The translations under genes and the position numbers were made by a program. This document shows, piece after piece, positions 4,912-17,562 of a stretch of 20,364 bases of DNA. The DNA is from Candidatus Nanoarchaeia archaeon (GTDB lineage: Archaea; Nanoarchaeota; Nanoarchaeia; SCGC-AAA011-G17; JAFCDX01). The stretch lies in NCBI GenBank assembly GCA_028717785.1, contig JAQUND010000003.1:1-20364 (forward strand), in the 5' to 3' direction. Positions within the stretch are counted from its first letter, which is position 1, and each line of letters begins with the position of its first letter. The notes under the pieces were generated by a model. That model searched no databases. It had not been told where the DNA came from and saw only the letters and a list, made by a program, of their open reading frames with translations.

Positions 4912-4940
4912 TGTACACTTGTTATTAATTGTGTTATATT
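4912..4940 (+). promoter_or_regulatory. Sigma70-type promoter of the main tRNA array
   Basis: TGTACA (4912-4917) and TATATT (4935-4940) are separated by exactly 17 bp. The same layout with TTTACA-17-TATATT, sharing the flanks ACACTTG and TTATATTTAA, stands before the second tRNA operon (16933-16961). The expected transcription start is about 4947. Confidence 0.75.
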
Positions 4941-4969
4941 TAACAGGTAATCACAAAGGCAAAGGATTT

Positions 4970-5095
4970 ATGATTCATCTAACTTCACTTATAACATGGC
5001 AAACGAAGATGGCACAGTATATGATCTATAGTTATCTGTCATGTTTAAGTTTGTCTCTCATATCATTTAAAAAGAGACACAAGGTGGAGCCTTAA
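4970..5095 (+). CDS. 41-codon leader peptide of the main tRNA array
   Basis: The ATG at 4970 is preceded by AAAGGAATT-like AAAGGATTT and lies about 23 nt after the predicted transcription start. The peptide begins MIHLTSLITWQTK and ends FKKRHKVEP. It contains every amino acid specified by the tRNAs downstream (His, Met, Tyr, Phe, Lys, Val, Trp, Ser, Leu, Thr, Cys; 31 of 41 residues) and lacks only Asn, Asp and Gly, for which no tRNA is encoded here. The end of the ORF (AGGTGGAG, 5082-5089) is perfectly complementary to the ascending arm of the terminator (CTCCACCT, 5127-5134). A hairpin TGTCTCT/AGAGACA (5052-5058 with 5073-5079) lies just before it. The ORF is visible; its leader role is inferred from architecture and from its sister at 16983. 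Confidence 0.7.
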   Translation: MIHLTSLITWQTKMAQYMIYSYLSCLSLSLISFKKRHKVEP

Positions 5096-5122
5096 GAATC
5101 TAATTAATAAAGAAACTTAAAA

Positions 5123-5157
5123 AAAACTCCACCTCCCAAAAAGAGATGGAGTTTTTT
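5123..5157 (+). terminator. Intrinsic terminator/attenuator in front of the tRNA array
   Basis: The stem AACTCCA-C-CTC / GAG-A-TGGAGTT has one C.A mismatch, a CCAAAAA loop (5136-5142) and a T6 tract at 5152-5157. It lies only 20 nt before the tRNA-His gene, so the array must be transcribed through it unless an unseen promoter exists. The loop is identical to that of the terminator at 17079-17113. Pairing of its 5' arm with the end of the leader ORF would disrupt it. Confidence 0.85.
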
Positions 5158-5176
5158 GCTTTAGATCTTTGAATTT

Positions 5177-5251
5177 GCCGGTTGTCGTCCAGTATGGTTT
5201 AGGATAGCAGGTTGTGACTCTGCAGACGAGGGTTCAAATCCCTCCGCCGGA
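5177..5251 (+). tRNA. tRNA-His (GTG), imperfect acceptor
   Basis: The anticodon arm GCAGG-TTGTGAC-TCTGC gives anticodon GTG. The D-arm GTCC...GGAT and T-arm GAGGG-TTCAAAT-CCCTC are sound. The acceptor (CCGG against CCGG) pairs only with a register shift and one mismatch, so the exact ends are uncertain. A G precedes position 1, as expected for the -1 G of tRNA-His. It is the first tRNA after the attenuator. Confidence 0.75.
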
Positions 5252-5260
5252 AATTAATAT

Positions 5261-5335
5261 CGCGGGGTGCAAGTAGCTGGTTAACTGGGAAGTCTCATAA
5301 ACTTTCGATCGCTGGTTCAAATCCAGCTCCCGCTA
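5261..5335 (+). tRNA. Initiator-like tRNA-fMet (CAT)
   Basis: The 5' end CGCGGGGTG matches bacterial initiator tRNA. The first base C1 faces T72 without pairing, the unpaired 1-72 hallmark of initiators. The anticodon loop is CTCATAA. The anticodon stem GAAGT/ACTTT lacks the usual three G-C pairs of initiators, and the D-stem has a mismatch, so function as an initiator is plausible but altered. Confidence 0.8.
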
Positions 5336-5353
5336 TTTGTTCTTTAAAATTGA

Positions 5354-5437
5354 GGGTCGTTGGCAGAGTGGCTATTGCATTTGACTGTAGATCAAACGGT
5401 TGTAAGACCTTCGGTGGTTCGAGTCCATCACGGCCCA
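5354..5437 (+). tRNA. tRNA-Tyr (GTA)
   Basis: Acceptor GGGTCGT/ACGGCCC, anticodon loop CTGTAGA (anticodon GTA) on stem TTTGA/TCAAA, a long variable arm as expected for bacterial tRNA-Tyr, T-arm GGTGG-TTCGAGT-CCATC and A73. Confidence 0.92.
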
Positions 5438-5447
5438 TTTTTTTAAA

Positions 5448-5520
5448 GGACGTTTAACTCAGTGGGTAGAGTAACAGATCGAAAATCTGTCGGTCGCCAG
5501 TTCAACTCTGGCAGCGTCCA
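5448..5520 (+). tRNA. tRNA-Phe (GAA)
   Basis: Acceptor GGACGTT/AGCGTCC, anticodon loop TCGAAAA (GAA) on stem ACAGA/TCTGT, T-arm GCCAG-TTCAACT-CTGGC, A73. CCA is not encoded. Confidence 0.94.
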
Positions 5521-5558
5521 TTTTTAAAATAGTAATGAAAAAAAATATATAAAAGTTT

Positions 5559-5684
5559 ATGAAAGCAAAAAACAGAATACCTGATGATTTAATAACTTTT
5601 TTTCTTAAGATGAAGAGTAAGGGTACTCAGTTTAACAAGAGACTTAAAAAGAAACTTGAAAAAGTAGAGAAACGTAGAAAGTGA
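5559..5684 (+). CDS. Small basic ORF between tRNA genes
   Basis: A 41-codon frame, MKAKNRIPDDLITFFLKMKS and then a very Lys/Arg-rich tail ending EKRRK. Composition and helix propensity look protein-like, and nucleic-acid binding would fit, but there is no clear ribosome site. It sits between tRNA-Phe and tRNA-Lys on the same transcript. I do not recognise it. Confidence 0.4.
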   Translation: MKAKNRIPDDLITFFLKMKSKGTQFNKRLKKKLEKVEKRRK

Positions 5685-5772
5685 CGGAGTACCAGTATGG
5701 ACAAAGATGATAAATCTGACAAACAAATAAAAATATTGGGCTTGTAATATAAGGTCTACAGGCTCAAGTCAA

Positions 5773-5846
5773 GGGTCTGTAGTTTAATTGGAAAAACACA
5801 ATACTTTTAATATTGGAAACTGTGGGTTCGACTCCCTCCAGACCTA
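5773..5846 (+). tRNA. tRNA-Lys (TTT)
   Basis: Acceptor GGGTCTG/CAGACCT with a G1.T72 wobble, anticodon loop CTTTTAA (TTT) on stem CAATA/TATTG, T-arm with one mismatch around TTCGACT, A73. Confidence 0.88.
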
Positions 5847-5867
5847 ATTTATAAATTTGGAAACAAT

Positions 5868-6026
5868 ATGTACCAGTTGATAATTAAAGTTCCATTTGAA
5901 GCTCGGGATGATCTTGAAGCACGATTAAAAGAACGTGATATGATAAAAGATTTGCCCTATGAGAATGCTGAAATAAAGTTACAGGAAATTTTTTCTGATA
6001 AAGCTCCAAGGGGCATCGGTCTTTGA
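5868..6026 (+). CDS. Small hypothetical protein within the tRNA array
   Basis: A 52-aa acidic/basic mixed protein beginning MYQLIIKVPFEARDDLEARL, suggesting a beta strand followed by charged helices. Only a weak GGAA ribosome site precedes the ATG. Its last codons run into the expected 5' end of the following tRNA-Val-like gene, and that tRNA lacks a proper 5' acceptor strand. The gene may therefore have been inserted there or have extended into it. No family recognised. Confidence 0.55.
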   Translation: MYQLIIKVPFEARDDLEARLKERDMIKDLPYENAEIKLQEIFSDKAPRGIGL

Positions 6027-6091
6027 AATTTCAGTGGTAGAAGACTTGGCTTACATCCAAGAGGTCGGCGGTTCGAGTCCGTCAGCATCTA
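6020..6091 (+). tRNA. tRNA-Val (TAC)-like gene lacking a matching 5' acceptor strand
   Basis: D-arm TTTC-AGTGGTA-GAAG, anticodon arm CTTGG-CTTACAT-CCAAG (anticodon TAC) and T-arm GGCGG-TTCGAGT-CCGTC are all well formed. The 3' acceptor AGCATCT would need AGATGCT at the 5' end, but the seven bases in place (TCTTTGA) are the end of the preceding ORF and do not pair. It is probably a damaged gene, or one that relies on unusual 5' repair. Confidence 0.65.
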
Positions 6092-6110
6092 ATCGGAACA
6101 AGAATATAAA

Positions 6111-6180
6111 AACAGGTAGGCTTAGAAGTAGCCATCCTTTAAAGAGTGAGACGAACTACCAGTTAGTGCTAAAAGTTCAA
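6111..6180 (+). ncRNA. RNA element resembling the 23S rRNA GTPase-associated centre
   Basis: Positions 6119-6148 reproduce, with one change in the first 15 bases, the highly conserved helix 43-44 segment of bacterial 23S rRNA (GGCTTAGAAG.AGCC followed by ATC.TTTAAAGAGTG; E. coli positions about 1062-1091). The base equivalent to A1067 is A6124. The element is closed by a new 5-bp stem, GGTAG (6115-6119) with CTACC (6156-6160), replacing helix 42; the helix 44 end loop (GCGTAATAGC) is absent. The match rests on my memory of rRNA. The role is unknown; a decoy for ribosomal protein L11 or its factors is one idea. Confidence 0.55.
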
Positions 6181-6191
6181 AAATATCTAAT

Positions 6192-6247
6192 GGGTAATTT
6201 ATAAGTTTCTCCGCTTATGTGGGGATGTTTCTACATAAGGATTACTC
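6192..6247 (+). ncRNA. Compact multi-helix RNA with possible pseudoknot
   Basis: GGGTAAT (6192-6198) pairs with ATTACTC (6241-6247). Inside it, CTTATGT (6214-6220) pairs perfectly with ACATAAG (6233-6239), and CTCC (6209-6212) can pair with GGGG in the hairpin loop (6221-6224) as an H-type pseudoknot. Downstream, 6290-6320 holds two further small hairpins (GTGAAG/CTTCCAC and ACCCA/TGGGT). Together with the rRNA-like element this fills the 269-nt non-coding gap between tRNA-Val and tRNA-Trp. No known family recognised. Confidence 0.45.
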
Positions 6248-6360
6248 AAGGTATAAATGGATGATGTGCTGCTGGAAAAATAGGAGTAAGTGAAGTTAAT
6301 GACTTCCACCCAATGGGTAGGTTTCTTTGGTGTAACAACACGTTTTTATGTTTGTTTTAT

Positions 6361-6431
6361 ATGAACGTAACTCAATGGTAGAGTACCGGTCTCCAAAACC
6401 GACTGTGGGGGTTCAAGTCCCTCCGTTCATG
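6361..6431 (+). tRNA. tRNA-Trp (CCA)
   Basis: Acceptor ATGAACG/CGTTCAT, anticodon loop CTCCAAA (CCA) on stem CCGGT/ACCGA, T-arm GGGGG-TTCAAGT-CCCTC, discriminator G73 as in bacterial tRNA-Trp. Confidence 0.93.
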
Positions 6432-6439
6432 ATTCTTAG

Positions 6440-6532
6440 GGAAGATTGGTCGAGGGGTTTATGACGTCGCACCGCTAATGCGAAGTAGAGTCTTTAACGA
6501 CTCTACCGCTGGTTCAAATCCAGCATCTTCCG
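6440..6532 (+). tRNA. tRNA-Ser (GCT)
   Basis: Acceptor GGAAGAT/ATCTTCC, anticodon loop CCGCTAA (GCT) on stem TCGCA/TGCGA, a long stable variable arm (TAGAGTC...GACTCTA), T-arm GCTGG-TTCAAAT-CCAGC and G73: all serine features. Confidence 0.94.
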
Positions 6533-6582
6533 TATTATTGCGAGTTGTTATATAATGTAATCAAAACACATGAGAAATTTTT

Positions 6583-7686
6583 GTGAACATACAAAAGCAA
6601 AAAACGTATTATGAAAAATTAGCAAACGAATTATGTTCTTACGGATGCAATCAAAAAGCAAATTTTATTTTAAAAAACGGGAAACCGTGCTGTTCAGATA
6701 GTCAAAATAAATGTTCTAAAATGAGAGAAAATAATCGTGCAAAAAACAAGATAAGAAAATGTTCTTTGTGTAATGTTTGCAAGCAAATGATTTCTAATAC
6801 TTGCTATAAACAACATAAAAATAATTGTAACTTGACAGAAAATAATATAGCAGATGCAAAAAAATATTTCAGTCTATTTGTGTCGTGGAGCGAAATAAAA
6901 CGCAAGACTGGCTTAAGAGAATCAGAAATGCGGAAAATTTTTAAAAACGAAAAAAGATCGTTAACACAAATTTTTAAAGTAGTTCATGCTTTAAATAAGA
7001 CTAATAGTTGGATACACAAAGAATCTTATGCAGAGAAATTTTTCAATAATTTTTTGATTAGTGAAGGTTTTGTCGAAGGGAAGGATTACATTAGAGAGTA
7101 TCAAGTTTCTTTTTATAGAATAGATTTTTTCTTTCAAAGTTTAAATATTGCAATTGAGATAGATGGTCAACAACACGTAAGATTGAGACATCAAATAGAT
7201 ATTGATAGAAGAAAAAACTTATTTTTAAGAGAACAGAATGTGGAAGTTATAAGACTTTTTTGGAAAGACATGTTTCAAGATACAAAAGAAAAACTTTCAA
7301 AAATTGCTAATTATCTTAAAGGGCAACAAGTTGATATTTCGATTATAGTTAGAAAACTAGAATATCCTGATAATTCAGAAATTATAATACAAAAAATAAA
7401 TAAAAATAAAGAAATGTCAATAAAGAAACATATAAAAATTTTGATTACTTGTTTAAAGAAAGTCCTTAAAAAACGTCCTAAAATAAAAAAAAGAGAAGAA
7501 AATTCAAGAAATGTTTTTATTATCAGAAAAGAACTCTTAATAAATTCAAATATAGATTTTTTTAAAAATGGATGGTTAGCAAAACTCAGTAGACTATGGA
7601 ATGTTTCACATACTCATGCAAAGAGACACTTAAAAGAATATTTTCCAGAAGTTAAATATAAAATTAGAAAGAAATGTATTGTTTAA
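6583..7686 (+). CDS. Free-standing homing-type endonuclease (Vsr/EDxHD-like) with N-terminal zinc finger
   Basis: A 367-aa protein. Residues 18-44 carry a cysteine motif (CSYGC ... GKPCC ... C) typical of phage homing nucleases, followed by a second Cys cluster at 60-82 (CSLCNVC ... CYKQHKNNC). Residues 92-125 look like a helix-turn-helix (SWSEIKRKTGLRESEMRKIF). The catalytic core at about 148-245 has E151, D181 in RIDFFF, E192 and D194 in AIEIDGQQH, and H198. This pattern fits the Vsr/DUF559/EDxHD (I-Bth0305I-like) nuclease fold. The rest (250-367) is very basic, ending in a possible second DNA-binding helix. GTG start at 6583 with GAG upstream. It sits between tRNA-Ser and tRNA-Leu and probably spreads itself by cutting tRNA arrays that lack it. 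Confidence 0.75.
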   Translation: MNIQKQKTYYEKLANELCSYGCNQKANFILKNGKPCCSDSQNKCSKMRENNRAKNKIRKCSLCNVCKQMISNTCYKQHKNNCNLTENNIADAKKYFSLFVSWSEIKRKTGLRESEMRKIFKNEKRSLTQIFKVVHALNKTNSWIHKESYAEKFFNNFLISEGFVEGKDYIREYQVSFYRIDFFFQSLNIAIEIDGQQHVRLRHQIDIDRRKNLFLREQNVEVIRLFWKDMFQDTKEKLSKIANYLKGQQVDISIIVRKLEYPDNSEIIIQKINKNKEMSIKKHIKILITCLKKVLKKRPKIKKREENSRNVFIIRKELLINSNIDFFKNGWLAKLSRLWNVSHTHAKRHLKEYFPEVKYKIRKKCIV

Positions 7687-7766
7687 AATTCGTCTCTCCG
7701 TTTGTTCAATAATTTATAAAGTTCAATAAACATAAGAAAAAAATGAACATGTGAATAAATGCACGT

Positions 7767-7958
7767 TTGGATTTTGGAGTTTTGGACGTTCTAGTGTATC
7801 GACCTTATGAATGTTCTAGAAATAGAGATCTTTGTATTTCTTTTCATAAGGGAACTTTGCCAAACACGACTTATGGTCAAGAAAAAGAACGTTGCCCGTT
7901 TTTTATTAGCGAAATAGAAAGTTTTGAACATATAGATATTGAATGTCAAGAAATTTGA
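7767..7958 (+). CDS. Hypothetical Cys-containing small protein, uncertain start
   Basis: A 63-codon frame whose first possible start is a TTG at 7767 with no ribosome site. The sequence from YRPYECSRNRDLCISFHKG onward is well-composed and acidic towards the end (SEIESFEHIDIECQEI), with four cysteines that might bind zinc. It ends 7 nt before tRNA-Leu(TAG). It could be the 3' part of a gene whose start was lost next to the homing endonuclease. No family recognised. Confidence 0.4.
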   Translation: MDFGVLDVLVYRPYECSRNRDLCISFHKGTLPNTTYGQEKERCPFFISEIESFEHIDIECQEI

Positions 7959-7965
7959 AATTTAC

Positions 7966-8040
7966 GCCCGGATGGTGGAATTGGGAGACACGGTTGTCTT
8001 AGAAGCAACTTTTCTGCAGGTTCGACTCCTGTTCCGGGTA
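7966..8040 (+). tRNA. tRNA-Leu (TAG) with unusually short variable region
   Basis: Acceptor GCCCGGA/TCCGGGT with a G1.T72 wobble, Leu-like D-arm (GTGGAATTGGGAGACAC), anticodon loop CTTAGAA (TAG) on stem GTTGT/GCAAC, T-arm GCAGG-TTCGACT-CCTGT, A73. Only about 6 nt lie between the anticodon and T stems, where leucine tRNAs normally have a long variable arm. Confidence 0.85.
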
Positions 8041-8124
8041 TTTTAAAAAGTTCACAATTACTTAAAGATGTGTAGAAGTAAAATCACCACACTTGCTTAA
8101 AAGAGAAGGTAGAGATATAGTTAA

Positions 8125-8206
8125 GCTCAAGTGATGGAATTGGGATACATGATTGTCTCAAAAGCAATTGCCGAAAGGTATGAGAGTTCAAATCTCCCCT
8201 TGAGCA
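8125..8206 (+). tRNA. tRNA-Leu (CAA)
   Basis: Acceptor GCTCAAG/CTTGAGC, anticodon loop CTCAAAA (CAA) on stem ATTGT/GCAAT, variable arm TGCCGAAAGGTAT, T-arm with one mismatch around TTCAAAT, A73. Confidence 0.92.
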
Positions 8207-8218
8207 GATCTTTGAAAT

Positions 8219-8293
8219 GGCAGCATAGTTCAGTTGGTTTAGAACGCCGTCCTCATAAGGCGGAAGGCGCTGGTTCGAATCCAGCTGCTGCTA
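8219..8293 (+). tRNA. tRNA with CAT anticodon (elongator Met, or Ile2)
   Basis: Acceptor GGCAGCA/TGCTGCT (G1.T72), D-arm typical of elongators, anticodon loop CTCATAA (CAT) on stem CCGTC/GGCGG, T-arm GCTGG-TTCGAAT-CCAGC, A73. It lacks the initiator-type first mismatch. Sequence alone does not tell me whether C34 is converted to lysidine (Ile2) or left as Met. Confidence 0.9.
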
Positions 8294-8345
8294 ATTTTCT
8301 AAACAATATATAAGAATCTACTTGTAACAACCAAGGAGGTTCAAT

Positions 8346-8528
8346 ATGTCTGATTTAGAGAAGAGAAGAAACGGACTTTTTACTTGTTTGGATTGTTCAA
8401 AGGTTAAGACGCAGAATTGTTTTGCTTGTAAAAATTGGAATTTGTTCGATGTCGATAATGCTCTTTTAAATTTGTCTTATGCTGAAAGAAGTGATATGTA
8501 CGCGAAAAAATCTGGAGGAATAGGATAA
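8346..8528 (+). CDS. Small zinc-binding protein overlapping tRNA-Ser
   Basis: A 60-aa protein with an excellent ribosome site (AAGGAGG, 6 nt before the ATG). Residues 14-29 (CLDCSKVKTQNCFAC) hold two CxxC pairs, likely a zinc knuckle. The rest is helical (LLNLSYAERSDMYAKKSGG). The last 15 nt, including the stop, are also the first 15 nt of the tRNA-Ser(TGA) gene, so processing of the tRNA would remove the stop codon from the mRNA. Family not recognised. Confidence 0.75.
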   Translation: MSDLEKRRNGLFTCLDCSKVKTQNCFACKNWNLFDVDNALLNLSYAERSDMYAKKSGGIG

Positions 8529-8597
8529 CTGGATAATCCAATAGTCTTGAAAACTATCGCCCGAAAGGGCTTGCAGGTTCGAGTCCTGCTTCCTCCG
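8514..8597 (+). tRNA. tRNA-Ser (TGA)
   Basis: Acceptor GGAGGAA/TTCCTCC, anticodon loop CTTGAAA (TGA) on stem ATAGT/ACTAT, variable arm GCCCGAAAGGGC, T-arm GCAGG-TTCGAGT-CCTGC and G73. It overlaps the 3' end of the preceding CDS. Confidence 0.94.
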
Positions 8598-8607
8598 TTT
8601 AATTTTT

Positions 8608-8680
8608 GCCGATGTAGCTCAGTTGGTAGAGCAGCTGCTTCGTAAGCATCAGGTCGGGAGTTCGAATCTCTTCATCAGCT
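8608..8680 (+). tRNA. tRNA-Thr (CGT)
   Basis: Acceptor GCCGATG/CATCAGC with one C3.A70 mismatch, anticodon loop TTCGTAA (CGT) on a stem with one mismatch, D-arm GCTC...GAGC, T-arm GGGAG-TTCGAAT-CTCTT, T73. Confidence 0.88.
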
Positions 8681-8684
8681 TTAT

Positions 8685-8807
8685 ATGAATAGATTATTAG
8701 TTTTAAAAGATAAGAAACTCGAGATATGTCATTCGTTAGTGACAAAGAAGTTTAAAAGAAAAGTGCTCGATCTGAAACACAGTTTTCCCTATATGTATGG
8801 GGATTGA
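8685..8807 (+). CDS. 40-codon ORF ending inside the CRISPR-like repeat
   Basis: Begins MNRLLVLKDKKLEICHSLVT directly after tRNA-Thr and ends KHSFPYMYGD with its stop inside the first 29-bp repeat (8782-8810). No ribosome site is visible because the upstream sequence is the tRNA. Composition is protein-like and basic. If real, the repeat pair could be a partial duplication of this gene's 3' end rather than CRISPR. No family recognised. Confidence 0.4.
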   Translation: MNRLLVLKDKKLEICHSLVTKKFKRKVLDLKHSFPYMYGD

Positions 8808-8871
8808 ATAATAAAACTAAATTAATTTGACAATCTACAAATGTTTTCCCTATATGTATGGGGATTGAATA
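8782..8871 (+). CRISPR. Two-repeat, one-spacer CRISPR-like mini-array
   Basis: A perfect 29-bp repeat at 8782-8810 and 8843-8871 starts GTTTTCCC, contains TGGGGATTGAA and is separated by exactly 32 bp. The 61-bp period and the imperfect internal palindrome (CCCTATA/TATGGGG) match the style of type I-E arrays (29-nt repeat, 32-nt spacer; consensus GTTTTCCCC...GGGGAT). No cas gene or third repeat is present. The first copy overlaps the end of a small ORF, so a chance duplication or paired regulatory sites remain possible. Confidence 0.45.
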
Positions 8872-8991
8872 TTGTTGATTAAGACTGACAGCACAATTAA
8901 AATAGAAAATAAAGAACAAGCTGCATTTTTTTCATTGGGTATGGTGACAATGTTAGAAGGTAAAGATAATGAATTAAATTGTGAGAATTGA
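8872..8991 (+). CDS. Possible 39-codon ORF after the second repeat
   Basis: From TTG at 8872 the frame reads KIENKEQAAFFSLGMVTMLE and ends DNELNCEN. It looks protein-like, but the only ribosome-site candidate is GGGGAT inside the repeat. Unrecognised and weakly supported. The stretch from 8992 to 9054 holds nothing I can support. Confidence 0.3.
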   Translation: MLIKTDSTIKIENKEQAAFFSLGMVTMLEGKDNELNCEN

Positions 8992-9054
8992 CTGAAAAAA
9001 CACAATATATTATGAATGTGCTGAAGAATTGTATAATTTAACATAAAGAACAGA

Positions 9055-9216
9055 ATGAAAGTTGAAAGGGCATTTGAAGTATTAAAAGAGATTGTTAGGG
9101 ATTATGATAGGCCCAATGAAGGTGATGAAGCAATAAAAAGTCTTGAAGAAAAATTATTTGATTTGAGAGAAGATAATGCTTGTTTGGAAAGGCGAATTGA
9201 AGAAGATCTTGAATAA
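9055..9216 (+). CDS. Small acidic helical protein
   Basis: A 53-aa protein, MKVERAFEVLKEIVRDYDRP then mostly Glu/Lys/Leu heptad-like sequence (SLEEKLFDLRED...LERRIEEDLE), likely a short coiled coil. The ribosome site is weak (AAGAA). The stop ends one base before tRNA-Cys, showing how densely coding and tRNA sequences are packed. No family recognised. Confidence 0.55.
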   Translation: MKVERAFEVLKEIVRDYDRPNEGDEAIKSLEEKLFDLREDNACLERRIEEDLE

Positions 9217-9217
9217 T

Positions 9218-9291
9218 GACTCTGTGGCTGAGTTGATTTCAAGCGACGGTCTGCAAAACCGTATACGGCGGTTTGAATCCGCCCAGAGTCT
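9218..9291 (+). tRNA. tRNA-Cys (GCA)
   Basis: Acceptor GACTCTG/CAGAGTC, anticodon loop CTGCAAA (GCA) on stem ACGGT/ACCGT, T-arm GGCGG-TTTGAAT-CCGCC and T73, the cysteine identity base. Confidence 0.93.
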
Positions 9292-9308
9292 CTTATTTAA
9301 GGTAGCTT

Positions 9309-9404
9309 ATGTATATGTCTAAGGAAACTTTCGACGAGTTCATGGAGTTTGCAAAAGAAGATGAACGTGACCAAGTTACGATACAGCGTAGCATATTGAA
9401 ATAA
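9309..9404 (+). CDS. 31-codon ORF
   Basis: MYMSKETFDEFMEFAKEDERD..., acidic and helical, beginning 17 nt after tRNA-Cys with no convincing ribosome site. The stretch after it (9405-9560) holds only a 16-codon frame and a TATAAT-like box near 9526. Weak call. Confidence 0.3.
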   Translation: MYMSKETFDEFMEFAKEDERDQVTIQRSILK

Positions 9405-9560
9405 ATAGAGCATAGGAAATTATTAAAGAAGCAGACCTGATGGACGAGAGCCCTGTTAGATTAGAAAAAATAATTCGTAAAAGACCATGAAGCAAATTTG
9501 CAAAAACTTCATTATTGGACAAGTATAATAAAATGGTAGGTTTCAGTTTTAGGAAATAAT

Positions 9561-9773
9561 ATGAGTATACCAAGATGGAACCGTGTTGCTTGCACGACTT
9601 GTAATGGTTCAGGTAGAAACCCTAAAAAAAGAAAAGAAACCTGTCCAAAATGTAATGGCAGCGGTCAAAGCAACATTTGTGCAGATTGTGGTAAAGAAAT
9701 CACTGGTGCAGGAAATTTTGAAAACTCGGATATTCGTTGTATTTGTCAAGATATTCCATTTGGAGCAATATAA
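9561..9773 (+). CDS. DnaJ-type zinc-finger (CxxCxGxG) small protein
   Basis: A 70-aa protein with CTTCNGSG (residues 11-18) and CPKCNGSG (28-35), the CxxCxGxG repeat of the DnaJ central zinc domain, then CADCGK (41-46) and a final CIC. J-domain and C-terminal DnaJ regions are absent, so it is a stand-alone zinc module like those found in many phages and small bacterial proteins. AGGAAA precedes the ATG. The stop overlaps the next start (TAATG), indicating coupled translation. Confidence 0.75.
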   Translation: MSIPRWNRVACTTCNGSGRNPKKRKETCPKCNGSGQSNICADCGKEITGAGNFENSDIRCICQDIPFGAI

Positions 9774-10057
9774 TGGGCTGGGATCATAACATCAGTTGTA
9801 AAGAATGCAAAGAAACAGTATGTATAGCAAGAAACAAGAAGTTATATCGTGATGATGAGTCATTAGATAGATTAGAAGCTTTTTTGAATAAGCATGCTGA
9901 TCATGAACTTATCTTTGCTGCTGATGATGATTATCCAAGAGTTGATGATTGTGACCAATTTGAGATTGAATATGAACTTGAATCTTGTCCCAAATGTTTG
10001 CAGATGACAAATCACCTCAACGGTGTCTGTTTGAAATGTAGACGAAGGAAATTATAG
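9773..10057 (+). CDS. Hypothetical acidic zinc-binding protein
   Basis: A 94-aa protein starting MGWDHNISCKECKETVC at the TAATG junction, with GGAG about 10 nt upstream. It has three Cys pairs: CKEC near the N-terminus, CPKC around residue 76 and CLKC around 87, flanking an Asp/Glu-rich middle (FAADDDYPRVDDCDQFEIEYELE). It forms a two-gene unit with the DnaJ-type zinc protein. Function unknown. Confidence 0.7.
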   Translation: MGWDHNISCKECKETVCIARNKKLYRDDESLDRLEAFLNKHADHELIFAADDDYPRVDDCDQFEIEYELESCPKCLQMTNHLNGVCLKCRRRKL

Positions 10058-10181
10058 TTCGGCTTGTTTATTTTCGGCAGGTGCATAAGAACGTTAGAAG
10101 CTTAATTGATTTTTTAGATAAGTCGTGCTACATAAACCGCGCTCTTGATTTATAGCTGGGCGCACTACGAAAAGAGATTTT

Positions 10182-10406
10182 ATGAGTGACAGTTGTCGAC
10201 CGGAAAGCACTACACCCACGCACGAGGTGTATAATGGTGATGCAATAAAGGATGTCACGCTGTACTGTGATAGCTCCAAGTACCCAACTCATATTGGTAT
10301 TCGGCTATCTACCGGTAAATATATTGAGGTTGCTCCGTCGCTCTCTACATGTTCACGTAGTATTACGGCGCAGCTTAAAGTGTCTCGTGGCGGCTGGTTC
10401 GAATGA
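10182..10406 (+). CDS. Hypothetical protein in a GC-richer island
   Basis: A 74-aa protein (MSDSCRPESTTPTHEVYNGD..., later GIRLSTGKYIEVAPSLSTCSRSITAQ) with an AAGAGA site before the ATG. Codon use and GC content are visibly higher than in neighbouring genes, suggesting recent acquisition from another source. No family recognised. Confidence 0.45.
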   Translation: MSDSCRPESTTPTHEVYNGDAIKDVTLYCDSSKYPTHIGIRLSTGKYIEVAPSLSTCSRSITAQLKVSRGGWFE

Positions 10407-10500
10407 CTCGTGTGCTCTAAGAGCTATGGAAGCGCGGCATGTCAGTATACTGTTCTGTTGATAGTTCGCTACGCAAAATTTTAGTTCTTTTAAATTATAT

Positions 10501-10588
10501 GCCCGGATGGTGTAATGGTAGCTCACGATGTTTGCGAAGGCGCGCTGGTAGCTCTCGGGTGGTGTCTGTTCGAATCAGGCTCCGGGCG
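10501..10588 (+). tRNA. Aberrant class-II-sized tRNA, anticodon not assignable
   Basis: Perfect acceptor GCCCGGA/TCCGGGC with G73 and a good T-arm GTCTG-TTCGAAT-CAGGC frame an 88-nt gene whose first bases match tRNA-Leu(TAG). The anticodon arm does not fold: the best loops (TTTGCGA or TTGCGAA, giving TGC or GCG) have stems with two or three mismatches. TGGTAGCTC occurs twice (10515-10523 and 10546-10554), suggesting an internal duplication. It is either a pseudogene or a tRNA with an unusual insert. Confidence 0.5.
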
Positions 10589-10594
10589 AATACA

Positions 10595-10834
10595 TTAAGG
10601 TAGAACATAAAAACTTCTACCAACACACAAAGGGTGGAAGATTGCGCTTTGGGTCGGTTCTACGGTGGCCATAACGAATCCGAACTCGCGATCCGGTAGT
10701 AGTAGAGTGTTCAAGTCGCTCAGCGCAAAACTTCCATCCGTTATATGAAAGGTTTTTTGTTCTTTGAATTTATAGGAAATTGCGTTTGCTGGAATCGAGA
10801 CAGTGCTCTCGTAAGGTGTCACCGCAAGGAGCAT
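10595..10834 (-). CDS. Possible minus-strand hypothetical protein
   Basis: A 79-codon frame opposite to almost everything else: MLLAVTPYESTVSIPANAIS, then KTFHITDGSFALSDLNTLLLPDREFGFVMATVEPTQSA. It reads like a real folded beta protein and shares the higher GC of the surrounding island, but no ribosome site is visible. Plus-strand frames here are closed. It may be a fragment of a transferred gene. Confidence 0.35.
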   Translation of the reverse strand: MLLAVTPYESTVSIPANAISYKFKEQKTFHITDGSFALSDLNTLLLPDREFGFVMATVEPTQSAIFHPLCVGRSFYVLP

Positions 10835-10943
10835 CGAGTCAAGTAATATTGGCGATAAATACGAGCTAAGAATTTACTAAGTTACATCCAACCGACAAGC
10901 CGTGAGATTCGGCAAAAAGGGGAACGCAATTTTCTTTAATTTT

Positions 10944-11016
10944 GTTTATTGTTATTTAATTTATTAAGATAGCAGATTATGATTATACAGACAAGAGTTC
11001 GATTCACTCAGCTAGA
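10944..11016 (+). pseudogene. Degenerate copy of tRNA-His
   Basis: GATAGCAG.TT.TGA......CAGAC.AG.GTTC.A parallels the tRNA-His at 5177-5251 (D-arm end, anticodon arm and T-arm in the same order and spacing). However, the anticodon would be ATG, the anticodon stem is broken, and the 5' acceptor (T-rich) does not pair with CAGCTAG. The 50 nt before it show no feature. Confidence 0.5.
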
Positions 11017-11038
11017 ATTTTAGAAAAGCGAAACAATA

Positions 11039-11057
11039 TGTTAATAGTTTCTAAATT
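11039..11057 (+). repeat. 19-bp direct repeat, copy 1
   Basis: TGTTAATAGTTTCTAAATT here is identical to 11228-11246, where it forms the first codons of the 222-aa gene. The match extends loosely upstream (AAAGCGAAA against AAGGCGAAA). The two copies flank the small gene at 11066-11233. Confidence 0.85.
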
Positions 11058-11065
11058 GGGACATT

Positions 11066-11233
11066 ATGAACGAAAAAGAAATAAAATTTGTTGAAGTTCT
11101 TGCTCATTATGGTATTGATGTTTTAGACAAGAAAGGCAACATTCATACGATTTGTAGTTGTCAAATTACAGCTGACAATGTAAACAAAGAAGGATATTAC
11201 ATTCCAAAGAAAAGTAAGGCGAAAAAGTGTTAA
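11066..11233 (+). CDS. Small hypothetical protein between direct repeats
   Basis: A 55-aa basic protein, MNEKEIKFVEVLAHYGIDVL, with a Cys pair (CSC) in the middle and a Lys-rich tail ending SKAKKC. GGGA lies about 5 nt before the ATG. The 3' end overlaps the GTG start of the next gene by 7 nt. Being flanked by the 19-bp repeats, it looks like an inserted or duplicated cassette. No family recognised. Confidence 0.6.
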   Translation: MNEKEIKFVEVLAHYGIDVLDKKGNIHTICSCQITADNVNKEGYYIPKKSKAKKC

Positions 11234-11895
11234 TAGTTTCTAAATTTCATGATTATTACGATAGTATAAAAACATTCGGGATAGACAAATCTATTGTTTA
11301 TAATCGTAAAACAGAAGTGATTAAAGAAAATATTTTTGATATAAATAAAAATTTTGTATTTGATTTTATAAATGATCATTTCTATTATAGAAATTTTAGG
11401 TATTTGTCTAATCAACCTAAAATTACAAAATTTAAAATTTCTATTTGCGGAACTCTTTATAACGGATTGTGTTATGATAATAAGTTTTATTACAAATTAG
11501 AAACATTTTTACAGGCTGTTCAAAACTTTAATAATGCATATTTTCAAGAATTTGTTCAAAGAAATAAACATATTTCTTCTAATTTTGAAATAAAAGATTC
11601 TGAAAAATTGTTTAATAAACATATCGAATATAAAACGCCAATTTTTACTTTTAGAGAAATGTTTAGAAATGAAAAAATTGTAGAAAAAGATTCATGTCTA
11701 AAAGAATTCAATTTTGAAAAAATTATAGATCCTTTTACTATGTTTCAAAAGATACAACAATTTATAAGTGGAGTGCTAACAAACATAGAAAAAGAACCTT
11801 GGCCTATTTCGGATAAATTGAAAGCTGAAAGTCATGGATATGATAAATTCAGTTTTAGAAAATTAGAACATCAACGAAAAATAAAGCCCAGGTGA
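11227..11895 (+). CDS. Conserved-looking phage hypothetical protein
   Basis: A 222-aa protein starting MLIVSKFHDYYDSIKTFGID (GTG start) and ending with EPWPISDKLKAESHGYDKFSFRK. Both ends resemble a hypothetical protein I recall from many large phages, with no known function. No membrane segment or cysteine cluster is visible; Phe, Tyr and Asn are abundant. The ORF overlaps tRNA-Leu(TAA) by 10 nt, so tRNA processing would cut off its stop codon. Confidence 0.75.
   Translation: MLIVSKFHDYYDSIKTFGIDKSIVYNRKTEVIKENIFDINKNFVFDFINDHFYYRNFRYLSNQPKITKFKISICGTLYNGLCYDNKFYYKLETFLQAVQNFNNAYFQEFVQRNKHISSNFEIKDSEKLFNKHIEYKTPIFTFREMFRNEKIVEKDSCLKEFNFEKIIDPFTMFQKIQQFISGVLTNIEKEPWPISDKLKAESHGYDKFSFRKLEHQRKIKPR
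11228..11246 (+). repeat. 19-bp direct repeat, copy 2
   Basis: Second copy of the repeat at 11039-11057, here inside the start of the 222-aa gene. It implies that the upstream copy is a truncated duplicate of this gene's 5' end. Confidence 0.85.
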
Positions 11896-11968
11896 TGGAA
11901 TGGAAGACAATGGAAACTTAAAATTTTCAGAGCGTATGCTCGTGCCGGTTCAAATCCGGCCCTGGGCA
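11886..11968 (+). tRNA. tRNA-Leu (TAA)
   Basis: Acceptor GCCCAGG/CCTGGGC, anticodon loop CTTAAAA (TAA) on stem GGAAA/TTTTC, variable arm GAGCGTATGCTC, T-arm GCCGG-TTCAAAT-CCGGC, A73. The first 10 nt are also the end of the preceding CDS. Confidence 0.94.
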
Positions 11969-15732: not shown

Positions 15733-15948
15733 GTGTCTTTTATTTATTCTTTAAACGATCCAAGAGACAACAAAATTCGTTATATAGGTTTTACAATAAA
15801 AACTTTAAAACGAAGATTATATTATTATGTTTTAGCTACTAAGCATGAAGCGAAATCCCCTACAGGAAAATTACAAAATAGTTTTGGTTGTTTGATAAGA
15901 ATAAAACGATATATTGTTCTAACTGAAAAGGAGACATATCATGTTTAA
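15733..15948 (+). CDS. Truncated GIY-YIG endonuclease
   Basis: A 71-aa product (GTG start 2 nt after the previous stop). Residues 3-20 (FIYSLNDPRDNKIRYIGFTI) give the GIY-YIG signature in the form IYS...YIG, followed by the conserved LKRRL. After about residue 45 (SPTGK) the sequence no longer follows the family, and the catalytic Glu/Asn region is missing, so it is probably an inactive remnant or lost an internal segment. Its last bases overlap the start of the next gene. Confidence 0.6.
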   Translation: MSFIYSLNDPRDNKIRYIGFTIKTLKRRLYYYVLATKHEAKSPTGKLQNSFGCLIRIKRYIVLTEKETYHV

Positions 15949-16708
15949 ATTCTTACCGACAAAAGAAATAAGAAATTTCAGTGCAAAAGATTTCATTGGA
16001 AAGTTTTTTGAGATTGATTTGCGAGAAATATCTGAAGACAAAAAACTACAATGGGTAATTGTCAGAGGCGATGTCGGAGGTTGCGGTTGGGTCCCTTTTC
16101 AAGGGAAAAAAGATGCAAAGATTAAACGTCAAGTTCAAGATGCTTACATAATGGAGCATCAAAACGGTGGTCGTTCTGATCATGATCATTATGACTCTTA
16201 TAAAGCATACTTCAATGACGAAAAAAAAGAAATTGTCAAAGAATTCTGGAAGCGTGGTCTTATGGGTCGCCTTTCTAGAAGCGGGGGAGATCCAGATGAA
16301 ATTTCTTTAATTCTTGTCTTCAAAGATTTTAAAATTGAAAATAATCTATATGAGTACCATGCACCTGAAGAATGGTACTCTGAAATGCATCAAGACAATC
16401 CAAAGTTCAAATTTAAACATGGTTTCTATGAAACTGCTGAAGAAGCAATCAAGTTTTTTGCTGACAAACCCAATGATGATTTGTTTGGTGAGAGATATTT
16501 TCCCGTTGTGGTTTTTCCCAAAAAAATAAAATGTAACGTTCGTGATATTGTTTGCTTTGCAAAAGGTCACTCCAAGCCAATTATTGTTGATGACAGAATA
16601 ATCTACGGTACTCGATGTAAGCCATCTGAATATCAAAGCGTAATTCAACAAACTTATGATTCTGGCGGGAAAGTTGCAAAAGCCATGCAATGGGATTGGG
16701 ATGAATGA
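15941..16708 (+). CDS. Large hypothetical protein
   Basis: A 255-aa protein with AAAAGGAG before the ATG. It is acidic/basic mixed and rich in aromatic residues. Notable stretches are VRGDVGGCGWVPFQGKKD, a His/Asp cluster GGRSDHDHYDSY (about residues 78-89), and a beta-like C-terminus ending AMQWDWDE. No fold recognised; the HDH cluster might bind metal. Its stop overlaps the next start as ATGA. Confidence 0.65.
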   Translation: MFKFLPTKEIRNFSAKDFIGKFFEIDLREISEDKKLQWVIVRGDVGGCGWVPFQGKKDAKIKRQVQDAYIMEHQNGGRSDHDHYDSYKAYFNDEKKEIVKEFWKRGLMGRLSRSGGDPDEISLILVFKDFKIENNLYEYHAPEEWYSEMHQDNPKFKFKHGFYETAEEAIKFFADKPNDDLFGERYFPVVVFPKKIKCNVRDIVCFAKGHSKPIIVDDRIIYGTRCKPSEYQSVIQQTYDSGGKVAKAMQWDWDE

Positions 16709-16893
16709 GCATAAAAAATTTGTACAATTATGTTTGATATTCAATAGAATATGACGGTGTCATCAGACATTCTGTCAATCATGGTGCTACAGAATATCAC
16801 AGAACTGTGATAAAAAATCTTGAGACTTCTAATTTTGTGATAGTGGTCACTAAGTGTACTGATAGATGTACGCACTTATTTCAATTCATGTGA
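16705..16893 (+). pseudogene. Small gene interrupted by an in-frame UGA
   Basis: The ATG at 16705 overlaps the preceding stop (ATGA), a normal coupled start. The frame runs MSIKNLYNYV, then TGA (16735-16737), then stays open for 51 more codons (YSIEYDGVIRHSVNHGATEY, later VIVVTKCTDRCTHLFQFM) to TGA at 16891. The continuation is protein-like with a CTDRC motif. A single nonsense mutation, read-through of UGA or a sequence error would each explain it. UGA ends several intact genes here, so a code change is unlikely. Confidence 0.45.
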
Positions 16894-16932
16894 AATTACA
16901 AATAAATAGTTTACTATTACTCAAAATAAATG

Positions 16933-16961
16933 TTTACACTTGCAGTAATTTGTATTATATT
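16933..16961 (+). promoter_or_regulatory. Sigma70-type promoter of the Pro/Gln tRNA operon
   Basis: TTTACA (16933-16938) and TATATT (16956-16961) with 17-bp spacing, and flanks (ACACTTG, TTATATTTAA) shared with the promoter at 4912-4940. Predicted transcription start is about 16968, 15 nt before the leader ATG. Confidence 0.78.
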
Positions 16962-16982
16962 TAAACTAACAAAGGATTGATA

Positions 16983-17045
16983 ATGTTTATAAGGTTTCCA
17001 CAGCAGCCGCAACAACCCCAACCAAGAAAAATACTTGGAGAGTAA
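16983..17045 (+). CDS. 20-codon Pro/Gln-rich leader peptide
   Basis: ATG at 16983 with AAAGG at 8 nt. The peptide starts MFIRF, then PQQPQQPQP, and ends RKILGE. It has 4 Pro codons (CCA, CCG, CCC, CCA) and 5 Gln codons (CAG, CAG, CAA, CAA, CAA) in 20, and the two tRNAs behind the following terminator are tRNA-Pro(TGG) and tRNA-Gln(TTG). The last Pro codon (17022-17024) begins helix segment 1 (CCAAG). The codons before the stop (CTT GGA GAG, 17034-17042) form segment 2. This is the layout of an amino-acid-biosynthesis-type leader peptide. The ORF and complementarities are seen directly; the sensing role is inferred. Confidence 0.85.
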   Translation: MFIRFPQQPQQPQPRKILGE

Positions 17046-17095
17046 TGCTGTTGGATTAACTGAATATTGATAAATACCAAACGGTTCCTCTCCAA
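17022..17095 (+). promoter_or_regulatory. Alternative helices of the Pro/Gln attenuator
   Basis: Segment 1 CCAAG (17022-17026) pairs with CTTGG (17034-17038) in a 5-bp hairpin. Segment 2 TTGGAGAG (17035-17042) pairs with segment 3 CTCTCCAA (17088-17095) over 8 perfect bp. Segment 3 is the inner 5' arm and loop of the terminator (3:4). 1:2 and 3:4 can coexist, while 2:3 excludes both. A ribosome stalled at the Pro/Gln codons would cover segment 1 and favour 2:3 (read-through). A ribosome reaching the stop would cover segment 2 and favour termination. Confidence 0.7.
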
Positions 17096-17113
17096 AAAAG
17101 AGGAGCCGTTTTT
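17079..17113 (+). terminator. Strong intrinsic terminator/attenuator before tRNA-Pro
   Basis: A 13-bp stem (AAACGGTTCCTCT with AGAGGAGCCGTTT, one T.G pair), loop CCAAAAA, then TTTTT-G-TTTT. tRNA-Pro begins 32 nt later without a promoter between. The loop sequence is the same as in the terminator at 5123-5157. Confidence 0.92.
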
Positions 17114-17145
17114 GTTTTAGAGACTTACGAAAATTTATTTTTTTA

Positions 17146-17221
17146 CGAGACGTCGCCTAATCTGGTATGGCACCACATTTGGGATGTGGAATAATTGTCG
17201 GTCCGAATCCGACCGTCTCGA
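17146..17221 (+). tRNA. tRNA-Pro (TGG)
   Basis: Acceptor CGAGACG/CGTCTCG with C1-G72 as in bacterial tRNA-Pro, anticodon loop TTTGGGA (TGG) on stem CCACA/TGTGG, T-arm GTCGG-TCCGAAT-CCGAC (T-loop TCC instead of TTC), A73. Confidence 0.92.
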
Positions 17222-17231
17222 TAATTTTTAT

Positions 17232-17305
17232 AGGGGCGTAACTCAATTGGTTAGAGTACGGGAATTTGAGTCCCGGAGTTGGAAGTTCAAATCTTCCCGC
17301 CCTTG
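17232..17305 (+). tRNA. tRNA-Gln (TTG)
   Basis: Acceptor AGGGGCG/CGCCCTT with a G2.T71 wobble, anticodon loop ATTTGAG (TTG) on stem CGGGA/TCCCG, T-arm GGAAG-TTCAAAT-CTTCC and G73, the discriminator of tRNA-Gln. It ends two bases before the stop of the convergent gene. Confidence 0.92.
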
Positions 17306-17307
17306 TT

Positions 17308-17508
17308 TTAAAACTCTTCAAACTCATCTTTGACTTGAGTTTTTAAACTACGAATTCTTTGAAGTACTTCATCTTTGTATTCGTCAAGAAATGAATGAAC
17401 AAATCTTAAAGCTTCTTCATCATGTTCAATACCTGACAAATCAATTGAAGTAATGAATTGGTTGTTGTTGTCAATAGTGATTTTAAATATAGTTTTTTCT
17501 TCAGTCAT
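17308..17508 (-). CDS. Small acidic hypothetical protein on the minus strand
   Basis: A 66-aa protein, MTEEKTIFKITIDNNNQFIT, then SIDLSGIEHDEEALRFVHSF and an acidic helical end. The ATG at 17508 is preceded on its strand by AAGGAG at 6 nt, so the longer upstream frame is not needed. It is the best-supported minus-strand gene in the window; it converges on tRNA-Gln and diverges from the radical SAM gene. No family recognised. Confidence 0.72.
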   Translation of the reverse strand: MTEEKTIFKITIDNNNQFITSIDLSGIEHDEEALRFVHSFLDEYKDEVLQRIRSLKTQVKDEFEEF

Positions 17509-17562
17509 GATTTTTCTCCTTGGTTTTAAATTATAATAAGAACGCAAACAAGGGTATATGAA

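What the first reader, a model, noticed from the sequence alone, without database searches (positions are those of the whole stretch)
16933..17305. Pro/Gln leader-peptide attenuator in front of tRNA-Pro and tRNA-Gln genes
Seen: promoter, a 20-codon ORF with 4 Pro and 5 Gln codons, a strong terminator, then only tRNA-Pro(TGG) and tRNA-Gln(TTG) with no second promoter. Helices 1:2 (CCAAG/CTTGG), 2:3 (TTGGAGAG/CTCTCCAA) and 3:4 (terminator) are mutually arranged as in trp-type attenuation. The last Pro codon lies in segment 1 and segment 2 abuts the stop codon. Known: such leaders control amino-acid biosynthesis operons. Inference: here the controlled product is the tRNA itself, so the phage makes tRNA-Pro and tRNA-Gln when the charged forms run short. 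I know of no described system of this kind.
Basis: partly seen in the sequence, partly recalled or inferred. Interest (0 to 1): 0.95.

Follow-up and report, generated by a model that had tools for sequence, protein, structure and literature searches.

The report
Phage tRNA operons with codon-reading switches
This likely phage sequence and five other phage records carry, in front of tRNA genes, a short reading frame rich in the codons that those same tRNAs read, followed by an RNA fold that is predicted to let the tRNA genes be transcribed only when ribosomes stall on those codons, which would be a self-adjusting tRNA supply.

Summary
The window holds two such leaders: Pro/Gln (16983-17045) and a second (4970-5095) heading the large tRNA cluster. 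The viral relative G002 has three, unrelated G007 five, G011 three, Bacillus phage G one (gp86) and Agrobacterium phage Atu_ph07 one. Each leader's codons match its own operon's tRNAs: over 17 mechanically found candidates, four of them non-matching, 0 of 300,000 permutations reach the observed match. The match reaches the Ser/Arg codon box (Fisher P = 6.7e-5). Cognate codons lie upstream of the point where a passing ribosome would remove the predicted antiterminator (230 of 342 residues versus 21 of 112 after it, P = 9e-20; swapped sets 0 of 3,000). By anatomy this is trp-type attenuation, but the controlled product is the tRNA set itself. Ten literature searches found no leader-peptide attenuator of tRNA genes. 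Limits: no experiment; 18 of 24 records read showed no such leader; the antiterminator is not beyond shuffles in 4 of 14 leaders; covariation untestable. New variant of a known kind, high interest.

The parts
16933..16961 (+). promoter of the Pro/Gln operon (TTTACA-17-TATATT)
   Evidence: the pattern TACACTTG-N8-13-TATATT occurs 3 times in the 194.6-kb relative G002, each time before a tRNA leader, and twice in the window, before the two leaders
16971..16976 (+). Shine-Dalgarno-like AAAGGA of the leader ORF
   Evidence: sequence
16983..17045 (+). leader ORF MFIRFPQQPQQPQPRKILGE, stop TAA; control codons 16998-17024 (CCA CAG CAG CCG CAA CAA CCC CAA CCA)
   Evidence: in G002 as MFLRFPQQPQQPQPRKILGE
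17035..17042 (+). segment 2 (TTGGAGAG), antiterminator 5' strand; CTTGG also pairs with segment 1 CCAAG 17022-17026
17088..17095 (+). segment 3 (CTCTCCAA), shared by antiterminator and terminator
17079..17119 (+). intrinsic terminator (segments 3:4) with T-rich tail
17146..17221 (+). tRNA-Pro(tgg)
   Evidence: ARAGORN, Rfam
17231..17306 (+). tRNA-Gln(ttg)
   Evidence: ARAGORN, Rfam
4912..4940 (+). promoter of the large tRNA operon (TGTACACTTG...TATATT)
4970..5095 (+). second leader ORF MIHLTSLITWQTKMAQYMIYSYLSCLSLSLISFKKRHKVEP, stop TAA
   Evidence: homologous leaders in G002 before tRNA-His and tRNA-Tyr
5083..5089 (+). segment 2 of the second leader (GGTGGAG)
5127..5157 (+). terminator of the second leader (CTCCACCTC...GAGATGGAG, T6); its 5' arm CTCCACC is segment 3; the stem has one C-A mismatch
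5176..11968 (+). tRNA operon of the second leader: His, Met, Tyr, Phe, Lys, (Val, Rfam only), Trp, Ser, Leu, Leu, Met, Ser, Thr, Cys, Ala, Leu, with ORFs between

Best explanation
Each of these tRNA operons begins with a leader ORF rich in the codons that the operon's own tRNAs read, followed by mutually exclusive terminator and predicted antiterminator folds, so it is most likely controlled by trp-type ribosome-mediated transcription attenuation in which scarcity of those tRNAs would switch their genes on. Shown by sequence and computation: the anatomy, the operon-specific codon match down to the Ser/Arg codon box, and the position of the codons relative to the predicted fold switch. Inferred: a ribosome that runs through the codon block covers or removes segment 2, so the 3:4 terminator forms and no tRNA is made. 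A ribosome held in the block because the charged tRNA is scarce leaves segment 2 free to pair with segment 3, and RNA polymerase reads on into the tRNA genes. Without any ribosome the terminator is predicted to form in 8 of the 11 leaders folded that way. The result would be a negative-feedback supply of tRNA, one circuit per operon. Less certain: that its purpose is to replace host tRNAs lost during infection, for example to tRNA-cutting defences.
For: (1) 15 leaders in 6 records: window 2, G002 3, G007 5 and G011 3, Bacillus phage G 1 and Atu_ph07 1. (2) Codon match: in the permutation over 17 mechanically found candidates, including 4 that do not match, 0 of 300,000 reach the observed sum; all 14 independent leaders exceed expectation, single P from 1.2e-6 (window PQ) to 0.033 (Atu_ph07). 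(3) Ser/Arg codon box before the switch: 9 AG-box and 2 other codons where the operon serves only the AG box, 0 and 12 where it serves only the other box, Fisher P = 6.7e-5. In G007, Arg codons are AGG/AGA before Arg(cct),Arg(tct), but CGC/CGT in the control block before Arg(acg),Arg(ccg). (4) Position: 230 of 342 residues before the predicted switch are cognate, 21 of 112 after it (P = 9e-20); P between 7e-16 and 9e-20 for footprint edges of 8-16 nt, and 0 of 3,000 with sets swapped among leaders. (5) Antiterminator better than shuffled linkers at P < 0.01 in 10 of 14 independent leaders, combined P = 5.5e-15. (6) Homologous leaders carry Tyr codons in the window and in G002-Tyr where G002-His, which heads tRNA-His, carries His codons (by eye). 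(7) The promoter-to-terminator unit is 89.6% identical over 201 bp to G002, the flanking blocks 72.8% and 78.3%. (8) TACACTTG-N8-13-TATATT occurs 3 times in G002 and twice in the window, in each case before a leader.
Against: No experiment. Folding is thermodynamic, not co-transcriptional, with an assumed ribosome edge. In 4 of 14 leaders (phage G, G007_EG, G007_KRV, G011_Phe) the 2:3 helix is not beyond shuffles (43, 37, 114 and 95 of 400). For the window's Pro/Gln leader segment 3 is still 0.33 paired upstream with a ribosome at the stop; 0.47 for G011_Thr, 0.42 for phage G, 0.34 for G007_CLYA. In 3 of 11 leaders (4970-5095, G002_Tyr, Atu_ph07) the ribosome-free fold does not keep the plain terminator. 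Some prominent codons have no cognate tRNA in the operon as read: 5 Asn in the G011 Gln/Pro leader, 6 Ile in the G007 Phe/Asp/Ser leader. 18 of 24 records examined showed no such leader. Transcription and translation are reported to be uncoupled in Bacillus (recalled), which would weaken the mechanism for phage G. Covariation could not be tested.
Confidence: 0.88

Rival explanations
1. The leader ORFs encode small functional or stalling peptides; codon likeness to the tRNAs is incidental and the terminator merely ends the small gene, with tRNAs transcribed by read-through.
For: Pro-rich and strongly basic peptides can stall ribosomes by themselves (general knowledge); two leaders are annotated as proteins (gp86, AUZ95228.1); the PQ peptide is conserved with G002.
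Against: Apart from the homologous leaders of the window and G002, the peptides share no evident sequence, only the match to their own tRNAs, and swapping destroys it (0 of 300,000). Synonymous Arg and Ser codon boxes fit the operon (P = 6.7e-5), which a peptide function does not need. The 5' arm of the terminator pairs with the leader beyond shuffles in 10 of 14.
Confidence: 0.05
2. The leader RNA senses uncharged tRNA directly, as a T-box does, without a ribosome.
For: The controlled entity is tRNA and the leader has a predicted antiterminator.
Against: No T-box match in the window or in L248, L250, L251, L255, L285 at gathering score (L144, L249, L254 and L281 were not searched). Each leader has an ATG and a Shine-Dalgarno-like site (for the G007 Phe leader at its inner ATG) and an in-frame run of several cognate codons, whereas a T-box has one specifier codon (recalled).
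Confidence: 0.03
3. The attenuator is real but works mainly in timing or dosage (for example lowering tRNA output while translation is healthy), not in sensing the loss of particular tRNAs.
For: Same anatomy; leaders of large operons (4970-5095, G002_Tyr, Atu_ph07) match broad sets, weakly one by one (P 0.0051, 0.014, 0.033), and would report general translation speed.
Against: Narrow leaders (PQ, HM, KRV, NPQ, EGMRT) are matched to their own tRNAs, and codon boxes are separated within one phage.
Confidence: 0.12
4. Chance: AT-rich phage DNA gives short ORFs and hairpins before tRNAs often enough.
For: Non-matching ORF-terminator pairs near tRNAs do occur (Racecar, 121Q, KVP40, G001).
Against: Those four show the chance level (21/55 against 21.4 expected, 1/16 against 0.8, 12/36 against 13.6, 0/22 against 0.5), while all 14 independent leaders exceed expectation.
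Confidence: 0.01

Closest known systems
trp/his/leu/phe-type leader-peptide (ribosome-mediated) transcription attenuators of enteric bacteria (recalled)
   Same: short leader ORF with control codons, segments 1-4, terminator/antiterminator switch, terminator favoured without ribosomes in most leaders folded (8 of 11)
   Different: stands before tRNA genes instead of amino-acid biosynthesis or synthetase genes; in phages; one leader can list codons of many tRNAs; Ser/Arg codon box follows the isoacceptor, not only the amino acid
pheST operon with pheM leader peptide (recalled)
   Same: a translation component is controlled by a leader rich in its own amino acid
   Different: the product is a synthetase, not tRNA
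T-box leaders (recalled)
   Same: tRNA charging decides between terminator and antiterminator
   Different: T-box binds uncharged tRNA directly; here codon runs inside an ORF; no T-box family match in the loci searched
Attenuators named at bacterial tRNA operons: glyV-X-Y of E. coli (PMC10950094, passages) and a B. subtilis tRNA operon (PMC4448311, passages)
   Same: a terminator that lets part of the transcripts through at tRNA genes
   Different: glyV-X-Y: terminator/attenuator downstream of the tRNAs, acting on datA, the term 'leader peptide' does not occur in the text; B. subtilis: the paper says a Thr operon 'has attenuation' and speculates on a riboswitch upstream, no leader peptide in the passages seen
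Phage tRNAs that evade tRNA-targeting defences (PMC10264068: start of abstract and a term search; PMC11555353: passages)
   Same: phage tRNAs make good the tRNAs lost to host effectors
   Different: phage SP15 is described as using a strong promoter; 'attenuat' and 'leader' occur in neither text

Membership tests
Ribosome-mediated (trp-type) transcription attenuators | short ORF with start, Shine-Dalgarno-like site and stop upstream of the terminator | tested here: met
   15 leaders; translation itself not shown
Ribosome-mediated (trp-type) transcription attenuators | control codons cognate to the controlled product's amino acid or tRNA | tested here: met
   0 of 300,000 permutations
Ribosome-mediated (trp-type) transcription attenuators | intrinsic terminator whose 5' arm can pair upstream (antiterminator) | tested here: met
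   as a set: combined P 5.5e-15, 10 of 14 at P<0.01; not beyond shuffles in phage G, G007_EG, G007_KRV, G011_Phe; in the window both leaders pass
Ribosome-mediated (trp-type) transcription attenuators | control codons placed so that a stalled ribosome spares, and a finishing one removes, the antiterminator | tested here: met
   230/342 vs 21/112, P=9e-20; edges 8-16 nt and swapped sets
Ribosome-mediated (trp-type) transcription attenuators | 1:2 pairing that frees the terminator without ribosomes | tested here: inconclusive
   terminator kept in 8 of 11 ribosome-free folds, including the window's Pro/Gln leader; not in the 4970-5095 leader, G002_Tyr or Atu_ph07
Ribosome-mediated (trp-type) transcription attenuators | read-through shown to respond to charging of the cognate tRNA | not testable with these tools
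   needs experiment
Known amino-acid operon leaders in Rfam | match to a curated leader family | tested here: not met
   window: tRNA only; L248, L250, L251, L255, L285: tRNA and group I introns only, at gathering score
T-box | match to the T-box family | tested here: not met

The most novel reading that the evidence does not exclude
Large phages partition their tRNA genes into operons, each guarded by a leader that spells out the codons of the tRNAs it controls. The phage thus reads, isoacceptor by isoacceptor, which tRNAs the infected cell has lost (for instance to anticodon nucleases or other tRNA-targeting immunity) and makes just those: a codon-addressed, on-demand tRNA replacement programme that arose repeatedly.
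Probability: 0.55. Interest if true: 0.97.

Novelty: new variant of a known kind. Interest (0 to 1): 0.94.

Why it matters
[quoted passage not shown] A switch that turns phage tRNA genes on when their own codons are slow would say directly that the phage responds to tRNA shortage, and the codon list of each leader would tell which tRNAs it watches. One carrier, Bacillus phage G, is a cultured phage with a known host, so the idea can be tested now. It would also extend the oldest model of bacterial attenuation to tRNA genes as a closed feedback loop.

Tried and rejected
No DNA relative of window 15900-18500 in INPHARED and none of the leader peptide. Exact and degenerate leader patterns in IMG/VR found only G002; the other hits were judged chance from their peptides or context, and 188 such loci held only 2 tRNAs and no candidate (this ran). 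Genome-contig scan: two distant glycosylase relatives, not followed up. In G001, G003, G010 and G012 no leader was found; one G001 candidate (L150) was rejected: no Met after the start although tRNA-Met follows. The Atu_ph07 leader peptide has one homologue, 95% identical; the G002_Tyr one has none; leader peptides of phage G and Atu_ph07 match only their own phage in INPHARED. Racecar, 121Q and KVP40 candidates rejected: codon match at chance. The Lys-rich ORF at window 5697, whose hairpin overlaps tRNA-Lys, was left out of the counts. A boxA-like element (motif recalled) was considered; the pattern is not clearly beyond chance in the window. A T-box was rejected. Covariation of 1:2 and 2:3 was not possible: the two Pro/Gln leaders are nearly identical. 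For named phages only fetched stretches with listed tRNAs were read; the listing was cut, so some tRNAs of those phages were not examined. A few tRNAs in overlapping pieces were counted twice in the totals 173 and 486.

Full report
WHAT IS IN THE WINDOW. A promoter-like pair lies at 16933-16961, then a Shine-Dalgarno-like AAAGGA, the 20-codon ORF 16983-17045 (MFIRFPQQPQQPQPRKILGE), a 13-pair terminator at 17079-17111, tRNA-Pro(tgg) and tRNA-Gln(ttg). No promoter-like match lies in 17046-17180. The leader RNA folds better than all 200 shuffles (z -4.2). That the window is phage DNA is inferred from its gene content and from relatives in IMG/VR.

A SECOND LEADER IN THE SAME WINDOW. Reading upstream of the large tRNA cluster (5176-11968) showed the same plan at 4912-5157: a promoter with TGTACACTTG...TATATT, ORF 4970-5095 (MIHLTSLITWQTKMAQYMIYSYLSCLSLSLISFKKRHKVEP), segment 2 GGTGGAG near the stop, and a terminator whose 5' arm begins CTCCACC. 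The mechanical terminator scans missed this one; it was found by eye, and it is left out of the unbiased permutation below.

A RELATIVE. IMG/VR contig G002 (194.6 kb; neighbour protein 72% identical) has a Pro/Gln leader; the promoter-to-terminator unit is 89.6% identical over 201 bp, flanking blocks 72.8% and 78.3%. It has two leaders homologous to the window's second one. One precedes tRNA-His and has five His codons; the other precedes Tyr-Lys-Phe-Lys and has Tyr codons at places where the first has His codons. The promoter pattern TACACTTG-N8-13-TATATT occurs three times in G002, before the three leaders, and not at all as the backward control; in the window it occurs twice, before the two leaders.

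OTHER PHAGES. Further records came from a glycosylase alignment and a tRNA-Pro pattern; named phages were chosen from tRNA or RNA-ligase hits and from memory. I surveyed tRNA-bearing stretches of seven IMG/VR records and the window (173 tRNAs) and of 16 named phages (313 tRNAs), and repeated it with scans that also require the fold switch. Leaders were found in 6 of these 24 records. G007 has five, and all 37 tRNAs of its map lie downstream of one of them: MIATTTIRIEGREGEGEGTIMS before Glu-Glu-Gly-Met-Gly-Thr-Arg-Arg; MLMIVKKVKVVVKRRKGSHRGEFRLFI before Lys-Lys-Arg-Val-Arg; MFIMNQNNPNPQQPRTEGSLGGILLA before Asn-Gln-Asn-Gln-Pro-Pro; one before Phe-Asp-Asp-Ser; one before Cys-Leu-Tyr-Leu-Leu-Ala-Trp-His-Thr-Ala-Thr-Ala-Ser. 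G011 has three. Bacillus phage G has MMKCSWFEFDTDFTDVFYCEYTFYSLYTFLDIRKQLQKSRGCLT (annotated gp86) before Cys-Asp-Phe-Tyr-Glu-Thr-Ser. Agrobacterium phage Atu_ph07 has a leader with the run AAMFWYPI before Ala-Arg-Phe-Pro-Ile-Tyr-Trp-Met.

STATISTICS. The unbiased set is every candidate with a tRNA close downstream that the terminator scans gave, longest ORF per terminator: 13 leaders and four that do not match (Racecar, 121Q, KVP40, G001). Left out: the 4970-5095 leader (by eye), the G002 Pro/Gln orthologue, and a Lys-rich ORF whose hairpin overlaps tRNA-Lys. Permuting leaders over operons gave 0 of 300,000 at the observed sum. An earlier version with 10 leaders and the first 2, 4 or 8 tRNAs gave 1 (identity included), 0 and 0 of 200,000. 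Operon lists were typed from ARAGORN outputs and cut at the next leader, at a long gap or the end of the fetched stretch; Atu_ph07, Racecar and KVP40 were cut after 8-9 tRNAs. Sets for long operons are broad and single P values there are weak. Codon boxes: where an operon serves only one of the two Ser or Arg boxes, codons before the switch are 9 and 2 against 0 and 12 (P = 6.7e-5). The two misfits lie upstream of the inner ATG of the G007 Phe leader, which has the better ribosome-binding site; all five such codons after the switch fail to fit.

MECHANISM. I folded each leader with a ribosome at every codon (edge 12 nt past the A-site). Segment 3 pairs upstream while the ribosome is in the cognate block and this falls once it passes. 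Cognate residues are 230 of 342 before and 21 of 112 after this point. Edges of 8-16 nt give P of 7e-16 to 9e-20, and sets swapped among leaders give a mean difference of 0.02 against 0.49 observed. The antiterminator beats shuffled linkers at P < 0.01 in 10 of 14; it does not in phage G, G007_EG, G007_KRV and G011_Phe. Of 11 leaders folded without a ribosome, 8 keep the terminator; the 4970-5095 leader, G002_Tyr and Atu_ph07 do not keep it plainly. This is the trp arrangement. Direction (stall gives read-through) follows from the fold logic and is inferred.

WHAT DOES NOT FIT. Five Asn codons in the G011 Gln/Pro leader and six Ile codons in the G007 Phe leader have no tRNA in the operon as read. 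Leaders were not found in 18 of 24 records, T5 and a T4-like phage among them. CCC in the window leader is not read by anticodon UGG under strict wobble (8 of 9 codons are). With the ribosome at the stop some leaders keep part of the antiterminator (up to 0.47).

KNOWN OR NEW. Ten searches (listings read) and term searches inside PMC10264068, PMC7824862, PMC9693318, PMC11555353, PMC6102473, PMC10950094, PMC4448311 and PMC3848588 (passages only) showed no leader-peptide attenuator of phage or bacterial tRNA genes. Two texts do speak of attenuation at tRNA operons: glyV-X-Y of E. coli, where a terminator/attenuator after the tRNAs limits read-through into datA, and a B. subtilis Thr case with a speculated upstream riboswitch. 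Subscription papers, such as the older T4 tRNA literature, are mostly not held. The window also encodes an RNA ligase (14157-15170), with a like ORF in G002 by eye; this would fit a life with tRNA damage, but is only suggestive.

Noticed in passing
window 8782-8810 and 8843-8871: Perfect 29-nt direct repeat GTTTTCCCTATATGTATGGGGATTGAATA with a 32-nt spacer, like a single-spacer CRISPR unit, near tRNA-Thr.
   Followed up: no
window 5697-5782: Short Lys-rich ORF MDKDDKSDKQIKILGL ending just before tRNA-Lys(ttt), with a hairpin that overlaps the 5' end of the tRNA.
   Followed up: partly
window 5166, 6020, 8209, 10486: boxA-like TCTTTGAAA/TCTTTTAAA (motif recalled) shortly before tRNA genes; 11 matches in the window against 6.6 expected, reached by 6 of 100 shuffles.
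   Followed up: partly
window 6028-6083: tRNA match by Rfam (Val, anticodon TAC by eye) that ARAGORN does not call.
   Followed up: no
L248 2944-3239 and 12433-12677 (-), L255 2386-2584 (+): Group I introns inside the tRNA regions of two large phages.
   Followed up: no
L145 7188-7261, L255 4117-4190, G007 31041: tRNAs with anticodon CTA (labelled Pyl), perhaps amber suppressors, in three large phage records.
   Followed up: no
L250 minus strand, just upstream of tRNA-Lys(ttt): A stretch GAGGAAAGTCGGGAC that recalls the RNase P RNA core (recalled); Rfam gives no match at gathering score.
   Followed up: partly
upstream of the five G007 leaders (L248-L251): They share a promoter-like TTTG...GGTATATTA of their own, different from the window's (by eye).
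   Followed up: partly
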